From Mesaphorura yosii (taxonomy: Eukaryota; Arthropoda; Collembola; Poduromorpha; Tullbergiidae), in NCBI GenBank assembly GCA_009869945.1, contig WIXG01000246.1, positions 1 to 64,000 on the forward strand: DNA of 64,000 nucleotides, given 5' to 3'. Position numbers and translations under genes: made by a program. Every line of letters begins with the position of its first letter. The stretch's first letter is position 1. Shown piece by piece: positions 2,775-55,000 of this stretch. A model generated the notes under the pieces. That model saw only the letters and a list, made by a program, of their open reading frames with translations, was not told the origin of the DNA and searched no databases.

Positions 2775-4210
2775 CTACTTAACATGTGCATTTTTCTGCT
2801 TTTCGACCATATCTACAATAAAAGGAATTTTAAGAGCATGTTTGTTGATAAGATTCAGCAGCTTTGTTAGGAGCGTGTCTCCCTTCATTGCGCTGCCCAG
2901 GATCTGATCAAACCGATCCGCCGTGTACTGCGTTGCGTCGGGCAAATGCTCCATGTCAGGAAGATCCTCTTTTGAAGCCGAAATGGCTGGACATAACAGA
3001 ATTCCCATTACGACCCCGTACAGTTTGTATTCCATGAATTCCTCCAGCAGTTTCTCGTAAGTTAACTCCGGATCGCCATATCCAAGCCTGGTGGCGTGCA
3101 CGGTAAACTCTTCATGGTAAGTCTTCAGCAACTCCTCCCACTGTTCATTCATGACCTGCATTTGAGGGCTCGAGTACAGAAAGTAGACGAAATCAACCAT
3201 TCGTGAGGATACTCGCGAGTTTTGAAAGTCGACAAACTTGAGTTCCAACGGAAACTTACGCTTGACATAATTTTCATTGTACTTGAATAAAATGTTGTTG
3301 GTCCAGACGTCTCCGTGACCAATCACGGCATTCGGTACGGGACTCGCGACAAGTCGATGCTGCTCGTTGTAGTAATCTTCGCTTCCAAGGGCCTCAATGA
3401 CTTGAGCCTCATTTTCGTACCCGTTTATCCGCAGCATGTTGGATTCATGATTCAACGATTCTTGGAAAAATGTGCGCATTGCTGCTGGCATTTGGGCAAG
3501 TGGGAGGGCGAATTTCTCCTCCAAGAAGGGGAATGTACGATGAATTGCTGCGTGGTCACCTCGAAACATGGAATGGGAAATGGCGTGCATTCTGGCCATA
3601 TTCTTCACTACAAGTGAGCAGTGGGCGAAGTCCAGTCCTTTTTGACGACTCACCATTTTGAACCTACAGATAATCATGCGATTTTTGTGTTCTCAATTTT
3701 AATTACAAAAACAAAGTCGTACCCCTGCCGCTTCAAATCCTCCATTGCGATGTAATCGGATTTGCCATCACAAAACGTTACATAGCATTTTGGAAATTGG
3801 TTGATTATTTCACAGCTGTCGCATTTGCCGGAAGACTTCTGGAATGCAACCATTGCAGGAAAAACTTCATCGTACATTTTGGCTTCCCGGACGAATGACT
3901 TTAATTCAGCCAACAGCTGCTGACGAATGGCTTGTCGTGACATTGTCTTCAGCATGACGTGCAGCGTTTGATTGCTGGGTCTTCCCTTGTCTTTCAAGTC
4001 TTGCTTGGTTCGAGCGTGAATCTCTACCGCGTACATGACTGACATGTAATTGTCGCCAGCAGCCGTTCCTGGTTTCAAGCTGTAATCAATGAGCTCTAGA
4101 TTGGGTGACACATGATGAAGAATGTTTTGTATCACTTCCACTTTCACCTTTGTGATCGGCATTTCGTCACGGACTTCGGCCAAATAGTTACTTGAAGAGC
4201 AATCAGCCAT
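2775..4210 (-). CDS. Ecdysteroid kinase-like (EcKinase/CHK) protein
   Basis: Two exons, 3723-4210 and 2775-3663, are joined across a 59-bp intron (phase 2) and give 458 residues. The join restores the family text LKRQGFKMVSRQKGLDFAHC. Other EcKinase marks are a glycine-rich nucleotide loop near residues 50-60 (GTAAGDNYMSVMYAVEI), the lysine strand LHVMLKTM, the catalytic HGDVWTNNILFKY and the metal-binding FVDFQNSR. The family is expanded in arthropods and includes enzymes that phosphorylate ecdysteroids, with proposed roles in detoxification. The substrate of this copy cannot be read. I chose the ATG at 4210 because the longer upstream frame adds a poor leader. The length is usual for the family and no lesion is seen. 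It is flanked by two small membrane genes on the opposite strand. Confidence 0.88.
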
Positions 4211-5634: not shown

Positions 5635-6180
5635 TTACTTAAACTTAACTTTGACCGAAGTGTCCCCATGAACGGTACTCTTTAAGCCAAGAATATTTTG
5701 TAGGTCTATGCTTCTCATTAAAACTTGTCTGATTCGTTTAACATTACCTGAGAACTTCTCATGCATTCTGAAGCAGCAGAATACCGACTTAATTTTAATC
5801 ACGGGTAAGGAGCACGCAATGCAATACACGTATTGAACTTCACACGAGAATTCCCACGAGTGTGGGTAGAAATTGTTTACCATATCATGATTACTGATCA
5901 CATTATCACGACACGACCAACCTATATGTGACAATCAGGAAGCAGTTGAAACACAATAGAAAGAATATTCTTCACACGTTGGAGCGACGTCGTTAACTTT
6001 TCTCCTATTTTGCAGTTCAATAACGTACTCCAACAAAGTTTCGTTGTTGCTCGGAGGCAAGATGAACTTCCGATTCCTATTGAGGCAGTCGCACAATTTC
6101 CGTGCGTCGACAGTCCGCCCGAATTTCGCAGCCAGTATTTCGAAACGGTAACTTGACTCTTTACACGAGCACAAGCCCAT
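5635..6180 (-). CDS. Unrecognised cysteine-containing protein, two exons
   Basis: Exon 5976-6180 ends in phase 1 (donor GTGAAG) and joins 5635-5921 after acceptor atatag. The 54-bp intron gives an unbroken 163-residue frame. The joined text has clustered cysteines (LCSCKES, KLCDCLN, APTCWSCRDN, FSCEVQYVYCIACS) and a basic C-terminal third. A second possible donor (ctcag/gtaatg) near 5749 could add a further exon in place of the C-terminal part. There is no obvious signal peptide at the ATG, so an upstream exon may be missing. I do not recognise the family. It lies head to head with the open frame starting near 6212. Confidence 0.35.
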
Positions 6181-6211
6181 GCACAGGACGGCAATGTCTT
6201 TGAAAATTACA

Positions 6212-7395
6212 GATTCGTGTCAAACAGCAGCAGCAACCCAGCTGAGCCCAGCAACGGTTTCGCTTCTTTTAACCTCGGCCCGATAAGCCATCCAGTTTAT
6301 GGAACAGCCAAAAACCTCGCCGGTCGTCTTCCCTTGACGCTACCATGTGGAACCTACAAAATTCCAGAGATTCTGGAGGAGAATAATCCAGAGTTTGATC
6401 AACTCGTGAACAGAATTGTGCCCTTATGCGAGGGGTTATGGCCCAATCGCGACAAGACTGCTGCATTCGTGAAGGACATCGTAGTCATCGTGGCCTGCAC
6501 AAATCCTCCAAAATTCTCAATGAGTGCACCTCAAATAATGACTCAAATCTACGCCTGGTGCTGGGGCCTGAGCCTTGACGACCTTGGGGACTTCGTCGAT
6601 CCGGACACAAACGAACACTCGAATATTCTGGAGGGCATGGACACAAAGACGTTTGTGGAAATCTGGAACTATTGGCACAGTTCGCTGCCGAAGGAGCCAA
6701 GCGTACAGCCTGGATTTGATATTACTGCCGGCTTCCCTCATCCGTTCAAATCAGCGAAGTACGACGCGGTTCAGCGCTTGGTAAGGCTCGGGTACAACGT
6801 ACTGAACAATCCGCACCCAGACTACATTTTCGAGCAACTTCATGGAGCAACTCTGGAGGAATGGTTCAATGCTTTGTGTGCTGCAAGTTTGCAAAATGAC
6901 TTTCGTAAATCTGGAATGAAATTTTCAAGCAAAGCAAGCCAGATTGAGCTTAGGCGGCGAGTCAACGCCATGGTTACCATCCTGGAGTACAACGCAGTGT
7001 GTCACGGGATCAAATTTCCAGCCAGCATTCGGAAGACTATCTTCTTCCAGTTGACTATGATGAATTTCATGGACATTTGCTGGCTTCAGAACGGGGTGCT
7101 GGGGCTCCTGAAAGACATCGCTACGAACAACGTGGAGGACAGTCCAGTGTTGACTTTGTGCAAGGTAGGCACGCACGACCTTCAGTCAGCGTTTGATGAA
7201 CTTCACACTCAAATGCAGGATTCGCACGCGGACTTTCAACTTATCTCCTCACAACTGCTCTACATTTATGGAGATGAAGACGACAACGTCGAAAAATATG
7301 TGGAATTACTCAAGTACACGATAGACGGGTTTCTTCACGCTATGAATCGAATATCCCGATACGGCCTGCAAGGTAAACTGACATTCCATGATTAG
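6212..7395 (+). CDS. Unrecognised protein, one long exon without its own ATG
   Basis: This frame is open for 393 codons, counting the stop, from a GTG at 6217. No ATG lies between the upstream in-frame stop at 6154-6156 and that point, so translation must start in an unseen upstream exon. The acceptor-like ttacag at 6206-6211 is in place for that. Alternatively the N-terminus is missing. The product is well mixed in composition and mostly helical-looking (for example KTIFFQLTMMNFMDICWLQN), with no signal peptide or membrane segment. An intronless frame this long is unusual in a window where coding exons are usually broken up. That, and the missing start, raise the possibility of a captured viral structural gene such as a nucleoprotein. 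I recognise no viral motif, so this stays a guess. If viral, it is a fossil with an open core. Confidence 0.4.
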
Positions 7396-11827: not shown

Positions 11828-11909
11828 GGTAGCGTGGCCGAGCGGTCTAAGGCGCTGGTTTAAGGCACCAGTCTCTTCGGAGGCGCGAGTTCGAATCTCG
11901 CCGCTGCCA
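11828..11909 (+). tRNA. tRNA-Leu (anticodon AAG)
   Basis: The 82-nt sequence folds as a class II tRNA. The acceptor strands ggtagcg and cgctgcc pair with one G-U. The anticodon stem ctggt/accag encloses the loop ttaaggc, which places AAG at positions 34-36. There is a long variable arm around tctcttcggaggc, and the T-loop contains gttcgaatc. The D-arm text tggccgagcggtctaaggc carries the Pol III internal A-box. AAG reads CTT leucine codons, and A34 is usually modified to inosine. Confidence 0.95.
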
Positions 11910-26966: not shown

Positions 26967-27309
26967 AAATTGAGTGACTCGACATTGTGCTCGTTGCAAT
27001 AACGCCTTTCGATTACAACAATAGATTGGACAACTCACGAGTGGAAACGTACCCTAACAAACATCCTCGAAAATCAACAAATACTAATATTCGATATAAA
27101 GTCAATAAATTAATAAGGTGTGAATTAAGCTATTGTTAAATTGAAATGGAGCGGCGGTCATTTATATAGAAATGTCAACATTATCATATTTTGAGAAGTT
27201 TGTAAGCTATCGTTTCAGTTTCGGGCGTGCCCAACCTATCGCACTTAAAATTATTAATTTGAGTTTGATATCGAGTAAATCCTCAGCCTTCCCGTACGAC
27301 ACACGAATC

Positions 27310-28738
27310 ATGGCAACTCTGAAGCAAAGAACAAATATGTGTGCCAACATCAATCGTTATTCAACTTTCACCAAGCTGGTAAATCTTTTTCATTACGCCG
27401 GACTCCTGCCCTTCCGATTTACTCGGAATAGAAATCGTGGCGAAGATTGTGCAATTTTCGCAAGTAGTACAAGAGTTAAATTCCTTCTTTTCGTGCTGCA
27501 CGTGATCACCATTTTCGACACAATTTTCAAAACAGTTCAAGACCTGGCGCGATGGAAAGATATAGTGGGAAGCCAGATAGGTACAAAGTGGGTGTTTGGA
27601 GTGGGCAATGCATTATTGCCTGGATTCGTTCTTGCGTACATCATTTTTTGCTGGAACTGTCAGTCGGCATTCGAGGAGATCTTTACTTGTCCATTGCCCG
27701 AGGAGCAGAAGGCCGGCTGGACAATTGTTCTCAAGCCCTTCCTTCTAATTGGATTGACCACATTTGGCTTAACATGCCATCTTATGATTTCGCTGTCTGA
27801 ATCAATAAAAAGTGGGACATCCAGCCCGCTTGAGAATTTCTACACAGACTCCCTCAACATCTTCTGGGTGAACAGGATGGCTGCCTCGGCTGGAATTAAG
27901 ACGGTGGCTGTATTTCTTCATGTCATCGGTTACTTCCAACAGCTAATCATAATGTATGGAATGGGACCACTGGGATTGGGAATCGGTTTCTTCTTAAATC
28001 AGATGTTGGATGACTTCAGACGCTTTTACACGACGAACCAAGATTTTTCACGAATCGTTAATGCCTACGAAAACGTGAAGCGGGTGACGCATCTTACGAA
28101 TCGGGTATTGGGATTCATTTACGTCACCCTCCTGCTGGATGCGCTCTTATTCTGTCCAGCATACATGGCTACGTCGTTTGAGCTGGATTTTGCAAATAAG
28201 CGCTTTTGGAGTGTTGCGTTTTGCCTTTTTACGACCAATACATTCTTTATTTACGGACTGTTGCTGTACCTCGGGGCAAGTATGAATGGGAAGGTAAAAT
28301 GCTTGTGGTTATTGTGGCTTGAGTTCTCAAGATAGCTAATCAAAATTAGTCTACCAGGCGCATGAGTTTTATGAATGGGTTGCAACCGAGTTCAACAGGA
28401 ACTTCGCCGATTCCACATGCGGTGCTTACACATTGCGTTCAGTCAAGATGTTTGATCTCTCGCCAGCCGATGTGCTGGCACCACTCCGTGTAGATATGAG
28501 CACTCATCAGGTTGCGATGAAGGGACGAGGATTCTTCACTTTCACCACAAGCTTTTCTGCAACGGTTAGTTTTCTTTTCTGCAAAACAAAACACTCAAAT
28601 CAATTTCGTCAAGCGTCTGATGAATCATCATTATATCGTGTTTCGTGTGAATTGCAGGTGATTGGTTTTGCCTTGAGCTACAGCATTGTCATACTGCAAT
28701 TCCAGCTCACCATGAACCCGACAGCCAAGTGCAACTAG
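27310..28738 (+). CDS. Gustatory receptor, TYxxxxxQF class
   Basis: Exons 27310-28293, 28358-28564 and 28658-28738, both introns phase 0, encode 423 residues. The N-terminal text KLVNLFHYAGLLPFRF and about six to seven membrane segments fit the insect gustatory receptor fold. The last exon reads VIGFALSYSIVILQFQL, a good match to the family-defining TYxxxxxQF end. The start at 27310 (MATLKQRT) is chosen over an upstream ATG at 27172 because the paralog next door begins at the equivalent place. The gene looks intact. The likely role is taste or contact chemosensation in sensory neurons. It stands in tandem with the gene at 28993-30444. Confidence 0.8.
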
Positions 28739-28992
28739 ATGATCGAATGCGTTGCGTTCTATCTCATCATAGCTCCAATTAGTTAATTACAGTTTATAAT
28801 CTTGAGGACGAAGTGCCGTCTATAATGAATTTAATCGCATATCTTTTTCACTGTACAGCAAAGCAAATAAAGTATGAATTTTGGTATAACAGAAGCTTTT
28901 TCACTAATTAAGTGCTCTGTTAGTGCTCTATGGCAGATCCTCCTTAAATTCATTACTCCATCACTCATTGTGTAAAATCGAACATTAGGAAA

Positions 28993-30444
28993 ATGGCGTG
29001 GCTTTCGCAGCACTCCGTTCAACATCGGCATTTTTCGAACTTCACAAATTTGTTGAACTTTCTCAATTTCAGCGGATTGGTGCCGTTTCGTTTCGTGTTG
29101 AACGAAACCACGAAAACGTACCGAGTCGTACATAACCACAAAGCGCTGAAGCTGGTTAATATGATTCTCCATTTGCTCATCGTGTATGAAAGCGTGTACA
29201 AGGCGGTGAAAACTCTTGGGAATTGGAAGGACACGGTGGGTAGTCAGCTGTCGACGCAATGGGTGTTTCAGGTAGATACGGTAATTTCGCCGACGTTCTG
29301 CCTGATCTATTTGCACTTTTCTTGGGTGTGCCATTCTACATTCGAGCAGATTTTGAGTCTGCAGCTACCGTCGCCACCGGCAAATTTTGAAATCAAGGGC
29401 AGGCTGATAGGCGGGTTAAAGTGGTGTCTGCCTTTTGGAATACTGATATCAAGTGCAACCGGTTTTCTTCTGAACGCGTTGGGGCAAGTCGGTGTCGGAG
29501 AAGTTGAATCTTCGGGCATGTCTGGCTTTCAAGTTGAAGCACTTGAAATTTACTGGGTGTCGGGCCAAAAGCCAGACTTGACAACCAAAATTATGGAATT
29601 CTTGGCTCTCTGTCTGCATTCTTTGTTCTCAATTCTGTTCTTGATCTTAGGCTTTGGAATTTTGCCTCTGGAAGTTGGAATCGGAATATTTCTAAACCAT
29701 GTCATGGACGATTTTAAGAGCGTCTACTCTGAGAGCCGAGATTTCCGAGTAACAATCCAGGCTTACGAGAGTGTGAAATGTTTAACGAAACTGCTGAACA
29801 ACGCCTTTGGATTAGTGCACGTGACTTCAATTTTGGGGTCGTTGATTTTCTTTCCGGGATTCCTCGGAGTCGCCTTCTTCGAGGTCGATTTTGAAAACAA
29901 ACGTTTTTGGAGCATGGCATTTCTTGTAAACGTGGTCAACTATTGTGTGGGTTTCGTGGTTCTGCTCTACTTCGCAGGGAATATCAACTCCAAGGTATTG
30001 ACAATATTGGAGTTTCAAGAATTTAAACAAATGTAGAGAATTGACAGTAAGCATCTAAAATTTCTCAGGCGCAGGAGTTCTATGAGTGGATTGCGACCGA
30101 AGTAAATACAAACTATGCCATTGGAAATGACACAATTACATCGAAGAAAATAACGGCGCCCACTGAAGTACTGGCATCTCTCCGAATTGACATGGTCACA
30201 CACCAACTTGCGATGAAGGGGAAAGGATTCTTCACATTTTCAACTAGCTTCGCTACAACTGTAAATCAAATCCCTTCCGTTCTTGTTTGAGCATCAATCA
30301 ATCGAATGTATGCCTAAATTCGTTAAATTATAGGTGCTCGGTTTCTCACTGACGTACAGCATTGTCATCCTCCAATTTCGCCTGGCAAGCACGCAACAAA
30401 CAAGCACGGTTTTGCTGTCTACATGTGAAAATCACACTTCATGA
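28993..30444 (+). CDS. Gustatory receptor, TYxxxxxQF class, tandem paralog
   Basis: Exons 28993-29994, 30069-30260 and 30334-30444 encode 434 residues with both introns phase 0, exactly the plan of the upstream copy. Shared text includes FSGLVPFRFVLNET, QAYESVKCLTKLLN, GKGFFTFSTSFATT and the final VLGFSLTYSIVILQF. The C-terminal tail after QFRL is longer than in the neighbour and unrelated. It starts 254 bases after the upstream stop. No lesion is seen. Tandem duplication explains the pair. Confidence 0.82.
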
Positions 30445-36908: not shown

Positions 36909-37991
36909 ATGTCGAGCGTGGGGCTTTTTCTGAAAATCAGTCTTGGCGTTGTGTTATTCGTTGACGTAAGTTAAATTAAAACATTCCTCTTTGTAGAGCA
37001 GTCAACCATTTGATTACATAACCCAACGCAGGACTTCGCCGGGGCGCAGAATGCCACGTCTGGGAATCCTGTCTTCCCAGGTTGGTACGCTGATCCTGAG
37101 GGGATCGTTTTCGGCAACAAATATTGGATATATCCAACGTACTCAGCCCCGTACGATCAGCAAACTCATTTCGACGCGTTCTCATCCACAAACTTGATCG
37201 ACTGGGTAAAGCATGAACGAATTCTGGACAGTGTAGAAGTCAGTTGGGCACGTCGAGCGATGTGGGCGCCTTCCATCATTGAGAAGGATGGGAAATATTA
37301 CTTTTTCTTCGGGGCCAACGATATTCAGTCCGACAACGAGCTCGGTGGTATCGGAGTCGCCGTGGCTGATCAACCGGAGGGACCGTACAGGGACCTTCTC
37401 CAGAGGCCGCTCATCGATAAAATTATTAACGGTGCTCAGCCCATCGACCAGTTCGTATTCCGAGATCAGGACGGGAAACATTACCTATTCTATGGAGGCT
37501 GGGGACACTGCAACGTTGCCGCGCTCAATGACGATTTCACTGGATTCGTGCTATTTAACGACGGCACACACGATTACGCGGTGAAGGAGGTCACACCACA
37601 AGGCTATGTGGAAGGACCCTTCATGTTCATTCGAAATGGGCTGTACTACTTCATGTGGTCGGAGGGTGGATGGACCGGCCCTGACTACTCCGTCGCTTAC
37701 GCCATTTCCACGTCTCCATTTGGTCCATTCAATCGCATTGACAAAATACTTCAGCAAGACCCCCAGATTGCGACCGGTGCGGGACATCACTCTGTGATTC
37801 AAGTTCCGGGCAAGGACCAGTACTACATTGTGTACCACAGAAGACCACTGAACGAGACAGATGCCAATCATCGGGTCACATGCATTGACAGGATGGAATT
37901 CGATGAAAATGGACTCATCAGACAAGTCAAAATCACAAACGAAGGAGTCGAAGCTGAGGAGCTAGGAAAAATACTGCAAAACTTACAATGA
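36909..37991 (+). CDS. Secreted glycoside hydrolase family 43 enzyme
   Basis: Exon 36909-36965 encodes a signal-type start (LFLKISLGVVLFVD) and joins 37032-37991 in phase 0, giving 338 residues. The catalytic part is a GH43 five-bladed propeller. The general base aspartate is D40 in WYADPEG, the pKa-modulating aspartate is D158 in QPIDQFVFRD, and the general acid glutamate is E213 in GYVEGPFMF. GH43 enzymes cleave alpha-L-arabinofuranosyl or beta-xylosyl bonds in plant cell wall polysaccharides. Which of these it prefers cannot be read. In animals this family is rare and usually of microbial origin. The spliced leader, host-like neighbours and AATAAA downstream (about 38024) show it is settled in the host genome and not a contaminant. 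Confidence 0.9.
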
Positions 37992-44880: not shown

Positions 44881-47250
44881 TCAACTTGATGATTTCATCT
44901 TGGAGTCAGTGGCTTTCACAGTCTTTGTCATCTGAGCAATCTTTCGTTTAACTCCACTTTTATCAGCCTCGTCCTAAAGAATAACATCCAACAAATAATC
45001 TTTGAACTCATGGTTTTTAATTTGTTGCCATTTTATCCTGCTCTTACCGCTAGCTGCGCCTTTAAGCTAGCCAAAGCCTCTTTGAATTTTCCCTCCAGAG
45101 GTTTGAGATCAGAATTCTTAATTGCAGTTCTTTCTATATCTGCTTTTCCGACAGTCTTCATGATCTTCTTGAACGATCCAATCTAAGTTATGGGAAGAAA
45201 TGCCCGATTTAGAAAATACCCACGACTGACGAATGCTAACGGAGAACCCACCTGATGCTTCTCAATCAAACTCACTGCATTTCCAAGCCTGCCAGCTCTG
45301 GCAGTTCGTCCAATTCGATGGATATACGTTTTAGCCTGTGCTGGTAGGTCGTACGATATTACATAGTCTACAGAAGGAATGTCAATTCCTCTCGACATTT
45401 GATCCGACGTGACCAATCTGGAAAAAAGGAATCATTGCTTGTATGATTAATCACCTTATAGACAGATTACAGCGCATAGATAGAAGCAAAGAGTAACTTA
45501 CACTTCAATCGCTCCACTTGCAAACTTCTTGAGCGTAAGATCTCTTGTGTACGGAGTCCATTTGGAAGAAATTTCTCTAACATTTACATTGCCCATCGAC
45601 TTCAGGAGAATACAAAGTCTGTGGGTATTCTCTTTAGTGTTTACGAAGCATAGCACACGCTGCCACTTGAATTTTGATATCAGACACGCTAATATTAAAG
45701 GCTTTAGCTCCTTTTGACACAACACAAACGACTCCTTTAATTCCAAAGGTGTAGTGTATTTTCCTATGAAGTTGTCGGAAATATCCGCTCCGGGTGCAGC
45801 TGCAATTTGTGTCTCTACGTCTTCAGATGATACTTTACTTTCTTTCTTCTCCACAATTGAAGTAAATAGCTTCGGTTGAAACAAATGTAGTGCTTCCAAA
45901 GTTTCCGAATTTTGTGATAATGTTGCAGAAAACAGGAGTTTGTGGAAACTTTTCAGGTGTAAATCTACTGTCCGTAAGTTCAATGGCATCCATGGCTGGG
46001 ATTGCTCTGCAATCAAATAATTGTTATCAATATTCATTCAGGAATATAGCTGAAATAGATTTAGTAAACGTATTTACCTGAACTATGATGAGACCAGAAT
46101 TTCACTTCTAATCGGTGCAGCCAATCCCCTTGTTGATCATCCAAAGTTCGGTCAGCCTCTTTAAAGTGAAAAATGAGATCAATTCTAGGTCAGGCTGGAT
46201 AAATTTAATGGTCAAGTTTCGAGAGTTTCATATTTTAGTTTACCATCAACAACGAGGAATTCCAGGTTCGAGATATCGAAGCCCTCCGTGTGCTCGATGT
46301 GATCAATTAATCGACCGGGTGTAGTAACAATTATGTTGTAAGGTATTCGAGATTTCCCGTTCAATGCAACTTTTAGAAGAGACCGTTTCTCAGATGTCAG
46401 AGAAACTTTCTTCGAAAGAAGGAATACTCTTAAGCTTGTGCCGGCACAGTAGCTTGTAAAAACGTCGAAGATTTGCGAGGCAAGCATGTCAGTAGGCAGA
46501 ACGATGAGTGCTTGTATTTTCGGCGTGAGGGACTTGTTCATTAAAATCTGCGAAAGCACAGTGAACGCTTAGGTACCGCTCTACTAATTCGTATTATTAC
46601 AATTACTATTTCTAAAAAGCTTACATGTACGAGGGGCAACACGTACGCCAACGTCTTCCCACTACCGGTTGGGGCTGAGACGCAAATATCCGACGGACGA
46701 AGCAGCTTAGGTGAATGCGCCTGAATTACCCATGGAATCACTTGCTTCTGAACTGAAAGTAAAAGTAACACATAATAGACACACAGGCACTGATCAGCGA
46801 AACGCGGGACAGGAGTGCCTCAACACAGGAAGGAATCTTACCGGGAAAGAAGTAGTTGATAAAATTCTGCTGCAATAGCGAAGTCAAATGAGGACAAAGA
46901 CCAAGTGACACGATGGAACTTTGGTCGTCATTTAGGTTTGAGCTAACTACGTAAGGATGAGATAGCCAATATGGCAGCGTTGATTTAACCTGCAAATCAA
47001 ATAGGACACTGATTAAGAACTTAATAAACCAACAAACGACCAATGAGGCCATCCTTAGAATTTTTCTCACCGCTTGTTTATTATGCTGTCCAACGTTTCC
47101 TATCACCGTGAAGCCTCCAACTTCCATTCCCTTGATATCAGTCGCACGCTTCTTTCTTTTTGCTTTCTTTGGCGGTGGAGGTTTTGAATCAGCCTGAGCT
47201 GCTTCTTCTGCACTCATTAAGACGGAGGCGGAGGACACTTCTGCGGTCAT
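44881..47250 (-). CDS. DDX51: DEAD-box RNA helicase DDX51 (yeast Dbp6)
   Basis: Nine exons (47071-47250, 46842-46989, 46625-46752, 46244-46547, 46078-46158, 45502-46006, 45252-45417, 45048-45182, 44881-44973) encode 579 residues. Motifs in order are APTGSGKT (about 136-143), IIVTTPGRLIDHIEHTEGFD, VVDEAD (about 251-256, across an intron), LLFSATLSQN, LCFVNTKENTHRL, SRGIDIPSVD and HRIGRTARAG. The text around LPYWLSHP near the N-terminus and GRLIDHI is typical of DDX51 among helicases. Its known role is in the nucleolus in assembly of the large ribosomal subunit. The N-terminus has a Lys-rich nuclear-type signal (PPPPKKAKRKKR). The gene is convergent with the ADGF gene, with 99 bases between stops. 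Confidence 0.93.
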
Positions 47251-48488
47251 TTTTATATTTTAAATCTTCGGAAACGTTATCTCTTAATCCGATCATTAAA
47301 TTCAGAATGCGAATAATTAGTGTATCAACTTCCAAAATGTTCAATGAAAGTTGAGTTGAGTCTGTCGTAACGTAAACTGCGAGTCCCTGTCCACATGTTA
47401 GCTTGAACTTGGCTTCACGTGATGAATGCAAGGATTTGCTCGGATTGGAGATGATCTTTGTTGAGAAACAAGCTAAGCATAAGCTTCTCGAAGCTGATAA
47501 ATTGGATAAGTGTGTGCAAAGTTGTGATGTGACGCGTTATCATATGCGCAATGCGAAGATGCAATGAATTCTTTATTTCCGGCTTAATGAAATGCCTTTT
47601 GCTTTCAATGTTTTCTTGATTTCCATTATATCAATCCATTTATTTGACTAGTTTCGCATTAAGTTTATTTTATAAGAACCCACAACTTAATAATCCATAT
47701 TCGAATTGTATGGGCTTAAAAGACAAGACGCACAACTTAAAAGTTTCCATTACAAAGTTCCCTTGCAAACAAAGATTACAATTCAATCCTCCGAATCTAT
47801 TCGAAATTCTCAAGTCGCAAACTTTTGCAATAGAATTTTAACTAGATTTTCACAGCTTAGTTATGTCATTTGTAAATATTCCAACGTCTAATTTTTAATT
47901 TCTCTTAAGTAAGTACTTATCAGTAGTAGCACAAGATAGAAGCTCTTCTTTTTGTTACATGAATTAAGATTACTTGGGTTGACTAGGACATACGTTTAAG
48001 TTAAGCTGTAAATGATTCGAGTTATTAAAGCTTATTAAACAAACAGCCATTTTTCATGGTTTAAAATACAGTTATTGTTGTAAAAGCATGTTAAATTAAA
48101 ATATCAGTTAGAGAGATTACATTACATTAAGCTTACGTTGTTAGATAATTGTGAAATGAATGATAATAACCGCCATTGACCAGCAATGGAGTCTCTGCGC
48201 TCTACACTTGAAATAATATTTCTTTCATTCCACAGCTCAAGTACACGATTGAATCTTACAGGTTTAAGTTCCTTAAGTAATCCTTAAGTTTCACAATATT
48301 AAATGCGGGGCGGTGGCGCGGCGGCGATAGAATTAATAAGTCTCTAAGTTGTCTGTACAAAAGTTAAAGGTCATCAGGTCATTAGTTCTCTTTTGTAAAG
48401 GTTCCCATTATTTCTTGAATTTTTTTGCGCACATGAAAAGAGATACAAGAATAATTCCAATTGAAAACGGCAACAGGATCATCATCTG
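47251..48488. other. Region between DDX51 and PDE4
   Basis: The right part is the 3' UTR of the PDE4 gene. A GC-rich patch (gcggggcggtggcgcggcggcg) sits at 48305-48326. Open frames near 47644-47891 are AT-rich and not supported. Confidence 0.4.
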
Positions 48489-49055
48489 TCACCTTTTTAA
48501 TACATTCCTCATCTTACTCATAAGTCTTCGGTACACGGAAGGTGAAACAGAAGACGCGGATTTGTCTTTAGCCTCACCCTGGACATGAAGCGTTCCACTA
48601 GCACTATTACTACCGCTACTCGTGGAAGGTTTACAGGCTTCTTCGATATCACTTTGATCACTTGATGCAGATGCTGATAAGGATGCTAACAAATACTTTT
48701 TGCTCTTGTTTAAAATTCCACCTGCTCCAGAACTGACAGAACCAGCTGCCGCTGCTGGAGTTGCATTCTCAGTACATTTTGCGGAACTATCCACTTTGGC
48801 TTTGGTTTCAGGTTTTGCACTACCTTTAGTTCCTTGACAGCCTCCTTGCGCCTTGTAACTAAAATATGATCCTCCACCTCCAAGAGACTCTTTGTCAGGT
48901 GAAAGCATTGACTCCTCTGCCACAACTAACGGAGCTCTATGACTACTGTTACCACTACTGCTTCTACTGACTTGCTGCTGCGTAACACGGTCATCTATTA
49001 ACAGGATACTACGGTCTGCAGCGATGCTACTGCGATGACCAAGTCTGGGTAGATG
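48489..49055 (-). other. In-frame open extension after the PDE4 stop codon
   Basis: Directly after the TGA at 49056-49058 the same frame stays open for 188 codons to a TAA at 48489-48491. It begins HLPRLGHRSSIAADRSILLI, continues with Ser/Ala/Gly-rich text (TPAAAAGSVSSGAGGILNKS), and ends with a basic helix RRLMSKMRNVLKR. The stop is followed by C (TGA-C), a leaky context. A phase-matched alternative intron also exists, with donor gtaata in the last PDE4 exon and acceptor ctgcag downstream. It would skip about 81 bases including the stop. Either route would give a longer C-terminus. Confidence 0.5.
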
Positions 49056-52000
49056 TCATTTGTCGATATCGTCTTCGTCTTCTTCAATGATATTACTATG
49101 AGTTGCTGGCGACGACTCGTCAGCAGCAAGGGTGAAAATTGGACGTTTGCTCTCTTCCGTCGGCGCTGGTGGTGGGGACGGCGGTATGGTCGACAAATAC
49201 CAATCTCGATTATCTTCTAGTGTGTCTAAGATCTCCTGCGCATCTGGATGAACGAGGTCGGCCCATGTTTCCCAGAGTGGATGGACAATGTAATCGATAA
49301 ATCCAACCTATCTCGATAAGGAAAGAGAACATGTGACTAACACAATTCAAGCTTAGTGTCTACACCAGACAATGTCTGTCGTACCTGTGTTTTCTCCACT
49401 GTCGAGTTATATCGATCGCACATCGGGGACATCGGAAGCCCTTGCTCTCGTTCTTTATCACCCTGTTTATAAAATTCTTCCATGACTCGGCCAACCCATT
49501 TTCTGTATACAGCAAGTGGTTTGGTTGGGTTGCTTAAGTCAGCGCAATGAACCATGTTTTGTAGAACCTATAGCATAAATTAAATCAGTAAAGTAATTTG
49601 ATTTCGCCTCTGGCATGCATGAAATGTATTCACAAACCTGTATCCTGTCAGTATAATTATCCAGCAACAATACTCCAGAACCAGCCACCTTCTTAGTCTC
49701 AACCATAGTTTTCAAATCAGCCAATAAACTCATATGTTTTGACATGTCCTGTGAAATAGGTGCAACAGAAGTCAGAAACATTGAAGTAAATTGTTAAGGC
49801 AAAATCGAACGACTTTCCGCTTTTTCGATTGTCAGATTCGTTTGAATATTCACTTGTATGAACAAAGTCTTCCGCAAATTGTTGGGTTGGTTGAAGTTGA
49901 AGTGCTACTTTGTTTCTCATTTTACTCCTTCGAAATATTGGCAAATATTGCGGAAAATAAGAATTTCTTTAAAACCTAAGATATCCCCTCCTTACTTAGT
50001 GGACGAGTACAAAAAGATTATCAGCACTGGTTTGTATGAGCGCCAAGTTTTGGACGAATACGGTGTCAAGTGTACAAACCAAATCAAAAATCAAAGTGGG
50101 ATGGTGAAACACGTGAAAAGACATGATAAGGAACTTGGGAACGCACAATCACGGAAACTATCGTCACTATCCCTGCCTTCACCTGACTCAAAAGCCTGAA
50201 CTTCTCAAAATTGGACTACCGGGACAGCAAGAATCTTCAAGGCCAATCATCAAAGCAACACTGACAAGAAAAGTTTTTTCTTACCGTCGCAAGAACCATG
50301 TCGATGACCATTTTTCTAAGAGTCAATCTTTGTTTCTTGGTTAAGTTCTCAAAAATATCACATCCTTCACTTTGTAGTAACTTGAATCCAACAGCTAAGT
50401 GATGATTTTCAAGCACCGATTCGTCATTGTACATTAAAGCAAGCTCGGAAGCTGAGTTGACAAGAAATTGATTTGTTAACCCGGGATGATCGACGTCGTG
50501 AATTGCTGCTGCGAAAAGAGCGGCCACTGTTTCTAAGCTTGTGAAGACATTCTGAAATTAATATCAAAAACATTTAGTTGGCTGAATTTTGAAACGATTT
50601 TCTTCGTAATTGGGCTGAAATTACATACCTCAAGTGCTGGAGAACTCAGCAAGCAGTGCACCGATTGCACAACGTCAGCAGCATGCACGCTGTTATGATA
50701 AGGTACCTCCTGTATGTAATGATCTTCCAATGTCGTCAGAAATGACACCAAATTCTTCGCTGGAATTTTCAACGTCTTCAGCAGATCTCGTGACTAAAAT
50801 TCAAAGAACAAAAAGAAATGATGATGGATTTCGCAAAGATGAAAGCAAGTCACCACTTGAGCGAACAGCAGCTTCAGCACTTACTTGAAATATGTGATAC
50901 ACAACACAGGTGAGTGGTTTTTGGTGTGTTAAGTCGGCAATTAGGAACACATCGATTCCCCAATTATCAATTTGATCCAGAATCTAAATATTTTGATTTT
51001 AGAATTTTTAGAAACCAATGAAGTAAAGTCATGCTCAAGTTTTCCTTAAAGTTGTCCAACTTACCTCTTCAAGCTCGTCTTCTTTATCAACAGAACAACC
51101 AAATTTTGGCAAAATATCCTCGGTTATGCTATTGGATGGTTTTAAACCTGCGACATAAATAAAAGAGATGATTTGGTTATCCGACTACCAAAGACTACCT
51201 AGGATTAAGAAAAACTGACCAGAAATGTGGCTCATGATTGCTGCTTTGTTGCTCCCTTTGCTCTTGTAATTTTCGTCCTGTGTTCCTCGCTGCTGGTCTG
51301 CTGCATCGTTAACTTCATCGATTCTTAGCGATGGGAGATCAAGTTCCTGTTGCTTGTCTGCGCAGAATCAGAATGAATACGAAATTAATTTTGTGACTAA
51401 TTCCCATGAAGAAGTAATTTAGGTCTTTCATCAAATGGCACGTACCGAGAAATGTAGTGCAAATGTATTCGGAGATTTGGTTGCCAGATTTTGAAGATTC
51501 TGAAAAGTGACTCAGTTCTTTGTTCAGCATTCGTTTGAACTGAAATTTTCAAAGGAAGGGAATGAATGAAATGAATTAGCTCAACTTAACCGTAAAAGAC
51601 GTGCAACGCGCTTGCCAAGTTGCAAATTCTGAGTAGTCTGACAGCGTATATTCTCTGGTTAATGTACCTTAGAAGATGCCATATCTGAAACACTTCGATG
51701 TGTCTGTATTGTCTCAAGTTGATCCAAACACCAGTCCAACTCGTCCAGCGTCTCCATCGCCATTTTTTGAAATGACTCGTCTGCAAGAGACAATGTGATT
51801 GATTTTATACTTGCAAAAAACTGTTGGGATAAGAAACTGGAATTTGTATTGCGTCGACATTGACAAACTAATTAACTGTAATTAAACGTTAAACCGAACG
51901 GATTCTGTCGCCAGCCCAAAGTGAGGTGAGATTCCTCAGAAAGTCAAAAGGATAAAAACAATTTTAGTGAGAAAGGTAAGGGTACGTCTATCGCAGTCGG

Positions 52001-55000
52001 TTTACAGAGACAAACTGCGTAATTCCGATTCGGAGGTTAACCAGTGAGATTATGCAACCAGATATCACCAACAGAAGTATGGGACATGATGACAAATTAA
52101 CCACATTGCTAATTAGAGTTCGACGAGTTCGAATGGAGAAATGGTTAACAAACCGGTTTCGATATTCAGGGACACTACAAGTCGTACAAGTGTCATTTAA
52201 GTCAAAGTTAACTGACGTGATCGATGTACAGTATTTACTTCTTTATGCCGACGGACAGACTACTTCTATACGTAATCGTCTAATCGTTAAGTGCAGCAGT
52301 GCAACGTAGCAACTCGCACGTAGACGCTGCTCTGAGCGTCCTACAAGACTTCACGTACACACCTGTTAAATCTTATTCTTTTGAGGCCTGTGACAAGAAC
52401 ATGCCGTCTAGTCTGGCTAGCGAGTTTTGACACTAACATGCATGAGGCATGACGGTGACGGTCCAGGCGCCAGTGTCAGTATAGCCACGAATCGTTTTGG
52501 AGTTTTTGCTTACCTCCTAAGTTGCTTCCCACCGAGATGTTGGTTGCAGGCGCAGGTTTTGTTTCGGCTGTAGTTGAACTCGATGAAGATCTTCTCGACC
52601 TTTACACGCAAAAGAAAAAAGATTAATTAACTGCATGCAAAGCAATTTAACAATTAAAAAGAGCGATCATGCACGACGTACCGATGTGATGATAAATTTG
52701 TCAATGAAATGTAGTTGTTTCGAACTGATCTTAAGCTGGCCAATATTTGAGCGAATGGTGTTACAATTAAATCCGCGTTTTCCGCATTGAATCCAATGGC
52801 CGCAGATGAACCTGTTTGCCTACAGCGCAGGTGAAGGAAAATAAACATCAAATTAGTATAACACGGATCACGGGGTTAATTAGCGCAGTGCGTCTTCCGT
52901 TGCGTGCCGCCTCCTTAATTAAACATTTACTACTAGTTAGAATTATAGCTTCGCTCCGGTTCTTTCCGTGTGATTTCATTCCGGCCATTAACTCTGTCGC
53001 AGCTCAACAATGGTAATTACTGGTGGGAACTTACAAGTGCTGCAGGTTCTCAATGGCGCTAGGATCCCCAGTGGTGATGGCAGCAGCACTGGCGGCAGCC
53101 GCGTTATGAATGAACTGTATTCGGTTCTTAAACAGGTTATTCTCATTTTCGAGCTTATCCCAGAACGAACTTCGATGCTTAATCCGTAACACTGAAGTGC
53201 TTAATGTTCGTGGCAATTTACCGCCAGTGCTATTCTGCTTAATCAGACTCAACCCTCCTGACTTCAACTGGGCTTTAGCTGTCGTTGCTGTCGCCATTGT
53301 CACTCCATCACTTTGGCTTATCGTGGCTGCCGTGGTTGACGTGCTCTCCGATACTGCAGTCACTGTCACGGTCGCAATCTGTACATCTTGGTCGGCGCCT
53401 GGACAGGCCGGATCAGCAAAATCGGTGCAGCCTGAACTCGTATTAATTGCGGACGAAGACAGCGATTGTTGCACAACTCTGGTAGACTTCACAGATGATG
53501 ATGAGGAGGACGAGGATGTTGATCCCACTTTGGTGATTACCTTGTTTTTGTTGCCAATCATTTTGAAGCTCGATGCAGGACGCGTTATTGTTGCTTGATT
53601 CGTTGCCTTTGTTTCTCAGTCGACTGTATTGTCGTTGCTTGCAGGACCGTACGCAGAATCAATGGATTTCGAGATTACAGCATAATTCTTCAGGAACTGA
53701 ATGAATCACATTCACGAGACACGACTCACGACGGAGTTACAACTGATTACATCGACTTAAGAATGTTCTACACGACGAATGAGTGTGTAAGACGTAGCAT
53801 TGGCAGAAGTGCACTAAATTAAAATCGGAGGAACGGATCGATGACTGTGATGCGTGATAGCGACTAGTGATGACGATGGCCACGATGATGGAGGACACAG
53901 ATAAATCATGATGGGCCGAGAAAAGAGCCACTACCACCACCACTATCACTCTACACCGCAAAATGCAGCACAATAAAACAGTGCAGCATTTTTAAGAAGC
54001 CAGGAGGAAGCTCAGACATGGGCACGAGCAAGAGGAGCAGTTGTTACGTAATTCCAGTCTCTTGGTGTGAGTACAAAAATCCCTTTTTATAGACCACGAC
54101 CACGAAAAATGCTCTTACTACTTGGCTACCGTATTCCAATTCCCACTTACGGCTCCGCCGTCGGTAAATACATACATGGGTAAGTAAACAGTGCAAAAGT
54201 GGTCTGTATTGCAAATATTGCGTTTGCGAAAAGAATTGTCTTTTCCCAGGTGTACTCTTGGCTGCGACGATACAAAACCCAGCACGCAGCATGCCGAGAG
54301 CGGAGCAGATGATGATACACGAAGGGTGTAAATATGTACACAGAAATAATACAGAGTAAAGTGGAGCACAAGTACAGAGGAGACTATGGAGAGGAGCGAA
54401 TGCGAATGGAACGAACCCCAGAAGCCAGTAGCAGCAGTAGGAGAGAAGGAGCTTTTACTTTAATAGTACATCAAATTATCATATCATGAAGTTGTGTAAT
54501 GAGAAGCCACTTCAGCATTCAGCATTCAGCTCCGGCCTGCCTGCTTCTGTGCACTACGCTGCTGCGTATTTCTATCGTTCGTGGTATGCAGGTAGGACGA
54601 ACGGAAACGGAATTCTGGAGGAGTGCGGTGCAGCAGCAGTGAATTTGAGGGGCTTATGTCTTAATAGAAAGCTAGAGGCGAAGAGTGACTACACCAAAGT
54701 TTGCGCTTGGCTTTTTTGATACTCCTAATAATAATGCTCGTGCTAGTTCTTGTGCCACCGTGCTTTTACTTATGCATGTAATACCACCAGCGACTGCTCA
54801 TTGTTCACAGCGCACGAGAACGTGCCTGGATTGCTTGTGAAAGTCGACACAGCACGGTGATGCGATGCGGCAGCGTTCGAGTTCGGGTCGGAAACGAATA
54901 CGAAAATCCGTTTGGAGTTCTGGGAAAATTCCTAGCCGAACGAAGCACGATACTCGATACACGTACGATGTACGCGACTATCAGTTGCTCCTGAATCGTG

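What the first reader, a model, noticed from the sequence alone, without database searches (positions are those of the whole stretch)
48489..49058. PDE4 stop codon followed by a 188-codon open frame: readthrough or hidden alternative splice
Seen: the TGA closing the PDE4 frame is followed by C, and the same frame stays open for 188 codons, ending in a basic helix (RRLMSKMRNVLKR). A chance frame this long in this base composition is unlikely. Known: TGA-C is a leaky context and arthropods have many readthrough genes. Competing explanation seen: an in-phase donor (gtaata) before the stop and acceptor (ctgcag) after it would remove about 81 bases including the TGA. Either way an extended PDE4 with a new C-terminal tail is predicted.
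Basis: partly seen in the sequence, partly recalled or inferred. Interest (0 to 1): 0.72.

Follow-up and report, generated by a model that had tools for sequence, protein, structure and literature searches.

The report
Possible stop-codon readthrough in PDE4 gene
In this arthropod-like genome the gene for the cAMP-degrading enzyme PDE4 ends in a leaky-type stop codon followed by 188 more stop-free codons, so ribosomes may sometimes read on and make a longer enzyme; this is a known kind of event, and it is unproven here because no relatives or RNA data could be compared.

Summary
Confirmed: on the minus strand a PDE4 gene (12 introns, 751 codons from the ATG used, UCR and catalytic domains) ends in TGA-C at 49058-49056. 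The same frame then stays open for 188 codons to TGA at 48491-48489, with 0 stops against 8 and 26 in the other sense frames. None of 20,000 dinucleotide shuffles and none of 20,000 Markov simulations is open. So the tail is probably translated, or was until recently. It has no match in Pfam, in PDB sequences or elsewhere in this genome. Against it: its codon usage is not gene-like, and its three-base periodicity rests largely on Ser/Gly/Ala-rich patches.

Mechanism: stop-codon readthrough is best supported (about 0.5): TGA-C context, a moderate predicted stem-loop 11-72 nt after the stop, one CAGCAGCA; each clue is weak. A recent nonsense change or a chance frame is not excluded. The likely effect is a second PDE4 isoform with a Ser-rich, positively charged tail ending in a basic amphipathic helix, just after a CR3-like segment. 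New member of a known kind; moderate interest.

The parts
49056..49307 (-). Last exon of the PDE4 first reading frame: end of the catalytic domain, a CR3-like IFTLAADE segment, an acidic cluster, then TGA at 49058-49056
   Evidence: best PDB match PDE4D, 1.1e-26, over residues 1-52; CR3-like is my alignment by eye
49056..49058 (-). First stop codon TGA, followed by C (AAA TGA CAT)
48489..49055 (-). In-frame second reading frame: 188 codons (48492-49055) plus TGA (48489-48491); Ser/Ala/Gly-rich, net charge +9 (K+R minus D+E), basic amphipathic C-terminal stretch
48492..48545 (-). Last 18 codons, SPSVYRRLMSKMRNVLKR, the largest helical hydrophobic moment of any 18-residue stretch in the tail
   Evidence: moment 0.60; 2.6% of 10,000 shuffles of the peptide reach it
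48984..49045 (-). Predicted RNA stem-loop, nucleotides 11 to 72 after the stop (best fold of the first 80 nt)
   Evidence: -22.0 kcal/mol, z -1.92; 120 of 2000 random 80-nt windows are as stable; the best fold of the first 60 nt alone is a different hairpin
48973..48980 (-). 8-mer CAGCAGCA, the commonest 8-mer in published fly and mosquito readthrough regions
   Evidence: one of 20 in the window, both strands; for the motif
49016..49096 (-).
49385..53561 (-). Upstream PDE4 exons 1-12 from the ATG used here (53561), with 11 introns; the 12th intron is 49308-49384

Best explanation
A PDE4 gene whose stop codon is read through by a fraction of ribosomes. Shown: a continuous PDE4 frame, TGA followed by C, and a 188-codon in-frame extension with a non-random lack of stops. 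Inferred: near-cognate decoding of the TGA, helped by the C after it and perhaps by the stem-loop that starts about 11 nt later, yields a minor isoform of about 940 residues. Its extra tail is Ser/Ala/Gly-rich (probably disordered), positively charged and ends in a basic amphipathic stretch. It starts about 20 residues after a CR3-like segment, the C-terminal piece that in mammalian PDE4 can lie across the catalytic pocket. The tail would therefore be well placed to alter autoinhibitory capping or, through the basic stretch, to tether the enzyme to membranes or partners. The ordinary isoform stops at the TGA.
For: Open frame against 8 and 26 stops in the other sense frames; 0 of 20,000 shuffles open and 0 of 20,000 Markov simulations open. 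Three-base periodicity in the tail reached by 0.38% of 5000 windows outside the 20 training ORFs and gone after the second stop: chi 6.3 for the next 142 codons. GC falls from 0.45 in the tail to 0.37 in the 300 nt and 0.32 in the 900 nt after the second stop. In 47260-49307 AATAAA occurs only beyond the second stop, at 47669, 47644 and 47577; ATTAAA occurs at 47899 and once inside the tail near its end, at 48501, so one mRNA would carry the tail. TGA in 61-76% and C after it in 49-63% of published conservation-based candidates, by group. Stem-loop, z -1.9 in the first 80 nt; best folds of the first 60 and 100 nt z -2.3 and -2.2. CAGCAGCA in the tail. No in-phase pair of good splice sites removes the stop. 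No SECIS family at Rfam gathering score in the window.
Against: Codon usage of the tail is at the median of non-coding windows (44% of 5000 reach it) and below all 38 coding chunks; GC at codon position 3 is 0.31 against 0.55 in the training ORFs. With Ser/Gly/Ala-rich patches masked (52 of 188 codons, chosen after the fact) the periodicity is reached by 513 of 5000 windows. The first 28 codons do not fit the phase pattern of the rest, although that pattern also ranks the right frame first in only 2 of 20 training ORFs. The stem-loop is not rare (120 of 2000 windows; 48 of 914 at similar GC), the best fold changes with window length, and the signal fades at 120 nt (z -1.13; z -1.33 with 14 of 200 shuffles on a slightly different stretch). 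By ribosome profiling in flies UGA is only 25% of events. No match for the tail in Pfam at E 0.1, PDB sequences at E 10 or elsewhere in the genome. The arachnid and the centipede tested in print lack abundant readthrough.
Confidence: 0.5

Rival explanations
1. Recent nonsense change, polymorphic stop or base error: the long PDE4 is the normal protein, and this genome carries a single-base change that made a TGA. The tail is then ordinary coding sequence, newly cut off or wrongly called.
For: A single base would explain an otherwise continuous frame; the frame is the same before and after. Such cases are known: PMC5100048 uses an estimate of 17 recent nonsense mutations in D. melanogaster, and PMC3840789 excluded two extensions where polymorphisms turned the stop into a sense codon. 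Loss of a low-complexity tail would be tolerated (inference).
Against: TGA-C is the expected readthrough context rather than a random stop; estimated readthrough stops (900) far outnumber recent nonsense changes in the fly, though perhaps not in this lineage. The locus is single in the assembly, so no second allele could be compared.
Confidence: 0.17
2. Hidden alternative splicing: an intron across the stop joins the PDE4 frame to the tail, and the TGA isoform is the unspliced form.
For: In-phase GT..AG pairs exist: 81 nt (49096-49016), 180 nt (49096-48917, acceptor score 5.54), 171 nt (49200-49030). Eight of the 12 real introns are 70-91 nt. The first 28 codons after the stop look less like the rest of the tail and, like the 180-nt stretch, are slightly intron-like (+0.04).
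Against: The donor ATA|GTAATA scores -0.58 and the best donor in the exon (TTG|GTATTT) 3.4, against 5.1 to 11.1 for 12 real donors. The 81-nt stretch has GC 0.44, at the top of the 0.27-0.44 of the 12 introns, and intron-vs-exon score -0.053, while all 12 introns are above 0. The 171-nt choice would remove the conserved residues after about residue 36 of the last exon and the CR3-like segment. The site model rests on only 12 introns of this one gene.
Confidence: 0.16
3. Chance: the stretch is untranslated 3' sequence whose frame is open by luck and by triplet-rich low-complexity patches.
For: Codon usage not gene-like; periodicity weak once patches are masked; no homologue in Pfam, PDB or this genome. 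A genome of many thousand genes could hold about one such frame (estimate).
Against: 0 of 20,000 shuffles and 0 of 20,000 Markov simulations open, with 8 and 26 stops in the other sense frames; GC falls at the second stop, not the first.
Confidence: 0.14
4. The tail is translated separately, from an internal ATG or as part of another transcript.
For: An in-frame ATG lies about 50 codons into the tail (...EESMLSPDK...).
Against: The frame is open well before that ATG; low prior. Promoters or other transcripts of an animal gene could not be tested here.
Confidence: 0.03

Closest known systems
Programmed stop-codon readthrough genes of Drosophila and Anopheles (PMC5100048, PMC3840789)
   Same: TGA-C stop; in-frame second reading frame; one CAGCAGCA; predicted stem-loop within 100 nt; signal ends after the second stop
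   Different: Those were called by conservation across about 20 species or by ribosome footprints, neither available here; lineage unknown. 'dnc' and 'phosphodiesterase' do not occur in the main text of either paper ('dunce' was looked for in PMC3840789 only), and their supplementary gene lists were not read
Stem-loop-assisted readthrough of Drosophila drifter/vvl (PMC13170385; PMC8417969)
   Same: Stem-loop that begins close behind the stop: +9 to +59 in drifter, here +14 to +75 if the stop is counted as +1 to +3, as that paper's '+4 to +9' suggests
   Different: drifter uses UAG; its stem-loop sequence is conserved in 29 Drosophila species and was tested by mutation; the loop here is only moderately stable (PMC13170385 passages read; PMC8417969 search listing only)
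Mammalian PDE4 C-terminal region (CR3 / FQF docking site; PMC5290487)
   Same: Catalytic end followed by a short hydrophobic-acidic segment (here IFTLAADE, by eye), which lies before the TGA
   Different: The 188-residue tail has no relative there: no PDB match; recalled PDE4B and PDE4D C-termini align no better than shuffled tails (109 and 503 of 1000 reach the score)

Membership tests
PDE4 cAMP phosphodiesterase (first reading frame) | PDEase_I catalytic domain plus PDE4 UCR region | tested here: met
   PF00233 3.9e-94 and PF18100 8.8e-51 on the spliced 751-residue frame
Functional stop-codon readthrough gene | Codon-level conservation of the second reading frame and of the stop across related species | not testable with these tools
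   No eukaryotic relatives held. With the last exon as query, (viral contigs; plasmids) found none, and (prokaryote genomes) found 3 archaeal stretches, matching residues 1-32 (two) and 7-76 (one) at 31-44% identity, of no use for the tail
Functional stop-codon readthrough gene | Ribosome footprints or peptides after the stop | not testable with these tools
Functional stop-codon readthrough gene | Second reading frame coding-like in a single genome | tested here: inconclusive
   Stop avoidance strong; codon usage not gene-like; periodicity partly from low complexity
Functional stop-codon readthrough gene | Leaky stop context (TGA, then C) | tested here: met
   group percentages from PMC5100048; not a requirement, UGA is 25% of events in PMC3840789
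Functional stop-codon readthrough gene | RNA structure within 100 nt of the stop (9% of Anopheles candidates) | tested here: inconclusive
   z -1.1 to -2.3; 120 of 2000 random 80-nt windows as stable
Alternative splicing across the stop | Donor and acceptor like those of the same gene | tested here: not met
   the nine GTs between exon start and stop score 3.4 and below, real donors 5.1 and above; acceptors within the real range
Selenoprotein (TGA as Sec) | SECIS element in the 3' sequence | tested here: not met
   the only Rfam match in the window at gathering score is a tRNA; this can miss divergent elements

The most novel reading that the evidence does not exclude
PDE4 in this animal makes two C-terminal isoforms by programmed readthrough, and the longer one carries a charged tail and a basic helix just after CR3 that changes capping or the place of the enzyme. 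If the animal is not an insect or crustacean, this would be readthrough of a long extension in a lineage thought to use it rarely.
Probability: 0.35. Interest if true: 0.6.

Novelty: new member of a known kind. Interest (0 to 1): 0.4.

Why it matters
PDE4 sets local cAMP levels in neurons and other cells (general knowledge). A translation-level switch that adds a tail next to its autoinhibitory CR3 segment would be a new way to tune or relocate the enzyme, and would add a signalling enzyme to the catalogue of readthrough genes. It would also warn that annotation of this gene in related genomes may be truncated.

Tried and rejected
Codon-usage scoring: it does not support coding; the tail's third positions are AT-rich. 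A periodic Markov score put the tail with the long ORFs (0.23% of 3483 windows reach it), but most of that gain probably comes from the absence of stops, so I do not count it separately. A phase profile trained on codons 47-188 put the right frame first in only 2 of 20 training ORFs and was set aside. Homology of the tail to PDE4B/PDE4D C-termini (shared SYFS and IDDR look-alikes): 109 and 503 of 1000 shuffled tails reach the score; to the fly dunce C-terminus, 9 of 1000, but over a Gly/Ser/Thr-rich stretch. All three reference peptides were recalled, not fetched. Selenocysteine: no SECIS hit. A second copy or allele of the region: none found in the assembly. Relatives of the last exon in viral, prokaryote and plasmid collections: none of use; the tail itself was not sought there. 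Taxon: no COX1 match; no insect odorant-receptor match, but the control of that search was silent. One arginine kinase exon scores best against 7re6 (organism not known to me) and 8yx0, 4bg4 (I recall crayfish and shrimp), then Limulus and a spider, then Daphnia (recalled), so crustacean chains lie both above and below the chelicerate ones; the other exon scores highest against two-domain chains 4rf6 and 4wo8, then the shrimp-like ones. I leave the taxon open: arthropod-like.

Full report
What was checked. The gene is real. Twelve introns with GT..AG ends were placed by eye from protein continuity and located by script; they give one frame of 751 codons from the ATG at 53561 to the TGA, carrying PDE4_UCR and PDEase_I at 8.8e-51 and 3.9e-94. 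Exons upstream of that ATG were not sought. The genome held is 93.0 Mb in 1127 contigs and has no relatives in the collection. No second copy of the locus was found there.

Is the open frame more than chance? The tail has 0 stops in its frame, 8 and 26 in the other sense frames and 13, 6 and 8 on the other strand. Dinucleotide shuffles average 11.7 stops, none of 20,000 is open; order-2 Markov simulations average 11.3, none of 20,000 is open. In 264 kb (window plus 20 regions of 10 kb) 36 of 24,370 stops are followed by an open run of at least 188 codons, genes included, and this run is the shortest of the 36. The base-by-codon-position chi is 46.8, reached by 0.38% of 5000 windows outside the 20 training ORFs; those windows still contain shorter exons, so this is conservative. 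The training ORFs are simply open frames of 250 codons or more and are assumed, not shown, to be genes. After the second stop the signal ends (chi 6.3 for 142 codons), and GC falls from 0.45 to 0.37 in the next 300 nt and 0.32 in the next 900 nt.

Results that go the other way. Scored by codon usage of the 20 training ORFs, the tail lies at the level of non-coding windows (44% of 5000 reach it) and below all 38 coding chunks. GC3 is 0.31 against 0.55 in the training ORFs and 0.45 in PDE4. When 52 of 188 codons in Ser/Gly/Ala-rich patches are left out, 513 of 5000 windows reach the remaining periodicity; the patches were chosen after seeing the sequence, so this is a harsh test, whereas leaving out one AGT-rich patch alone hardly lowers it (41.5). 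The first 28 codons do not share the phase pattern of the rest. The tail has no Pfam match at E 0.1, no PDB sequence match at E 10 and no second copy in the genome. My reading is that the tail is translated, or was so until recently, with probability about 0.85.

How would it be translated? Splicing was tested against the gene's own 12 introns (70-733 nt; ten of them 70-215 nt). Its acceptor (2.74) is within the real range (0.1-10.3). The best-scoring in-phase pair uses TTG|GTATTT (3.4) and an acceptor at 49030; it would delete the conserved residues after about residue 36 of the last exon and the CR3-like segment. By composition the 81 nt look like exon (-0.053; 12 introns 0.013 to 0.181; 13 exon pieces -0.162 to 0.022), whereas a 180-nt alternative with a good acceptor (48917) is slightly intron-like (+0.04) but shares the poor donor. 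The tail as a whole scores 0.015, between the classes. Splicing is therefore unlikely but not excluded; the models rest on 12 sites of one gene.

Readthrough is favoured by context. In PMC5100048 (abstract, section 5 part 1 of 2, sections 12 and 28, and passages read) TGA is the first stop in 61-76% and C follows in 49-63% of fly and mosquito candidates, by group; predicted structures in the 100 nt after the stop occur in 9% against fewer than 1%; CAGCAGCA occurs in 35.3% of fly and 23.5% of mosquito regions. In PMC3840789 (passages read), however, UGA is only 25% of the events seen by ribosome profiling. Here the stop is TGA-C. The best fold of the first 80 nt is a stem-loop over nucleotides 11-72 after the stop (z -1.92, 3.6% of 500 shuffles); the first 60 nt fold into a different hairpin (z -2.34, 2.6%), the first 100 nt keep the stem with an outer helix (z -2.17, 3.4%), and at 120 nt z is -1.13 (12.4%); a slightly different stretch gave z -1.33, 14 of 200 shuffles. 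120 of 2000 random 80-nt windows are as stable. A CAGCAGCA lies in the tail; the window holds 20 on both strands, so about 0.1 would be expected in such a stretch (my estimate). A stem-loop at +9 to +59 drives readthrough of drifter in flies (PMC13170385, passages read); in that numbering the one here is at +14 to +75. Each clue is weak alone.

Priors matter. PMC5100048 estimates about 900 readthrough stops in D. melanogaster (abstract) and uses 17 recent nonsense changes, but finds no abundant readthrough in the arachnid and the centipede tested, nor in two of the insects. The taxon of this window is not settled: an ecdysteroid-kinase-like gene, a GH43 gene and a below-cut-off terpene-synthase-like match would suit a soil arthropod (inference); odorant-receptor models found nothing, with a silent control; arginine kinase gives a mixed answer (organisms of the chains recalled). 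If it is a springtail or crustacean, readthrough gains; if a mite, recent nonsense gains.

What it would do. In mammalian PDE4 the CR3 segment with its FQF motif can lie across the catalytic pocket and serves as a docking site (PMC5290487, passages read). The comparable segment here, IFTLAADE, is before the TGA (alignment by eye). The extension would follow about 20 residues later. It is 21% Ser, 11% Ala, 9% Gly, net charge +9, and its last 18 residues have the largest hydrophobic moment (0.60; 2.6% of 10,000 shuffles). Membrane or calmodulin binding by such helices is general knowledge, not tested here. No structure was predicted.

Verdict. Readthrough 0.5; recent nonsense, polymorphism or base error 0.17; hidden splice 0.16; chance 0.14; separate translation 0.03. 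Searches for PDE4, dunce or phosphodiesterase together with readthrough gave no relevant paper (listings), in a library limited to open licences; supplementary gene lists were not read, so I do not claim it is unreported.

Noticed in passing
37014-37988 (+): 325-codon open frame matching glycosyl hydrolase family 43 (6.9e-52), without introns over that length; possibly a horizontally acquired gene in an animal genome.
   Followed up: no
6157-7392 (+): 412-codon open frame with a weak, below-cutoff match to terpene synthase family 2 (4.5e-4), of the kind reported as horizontally acquired in some mites (recalled).
   Followed up: no
2778-3692 (-): 305-codon frame of the ecdysteroid-kinase-like family (4.9e-39).
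   Followed up: no
27145-28332 (+) and 28948-30033 (+): Two long neighbouring open frames (396 and 362 codons) with no convincing Pfam match.
   Followed up: no
about 45500-47260 (-): The gene directly downstream on the same strand looks like a DEAD-box RNA helicase (PTGSGKT motif seen by eye, not searched); its open frame starts about 1.2 kb after the second PDE4 stop.
   Followed up: no
11828-11909 (+): One tRNA gene, the only Rfam match in the window at gathering score.
   Followed up: no
window, 20 places: CAGCAGCA occurs 20 times in the window against 2.75 expected from dinucleotide shuffles, so the motif is common here in general.
   Followed up: partly
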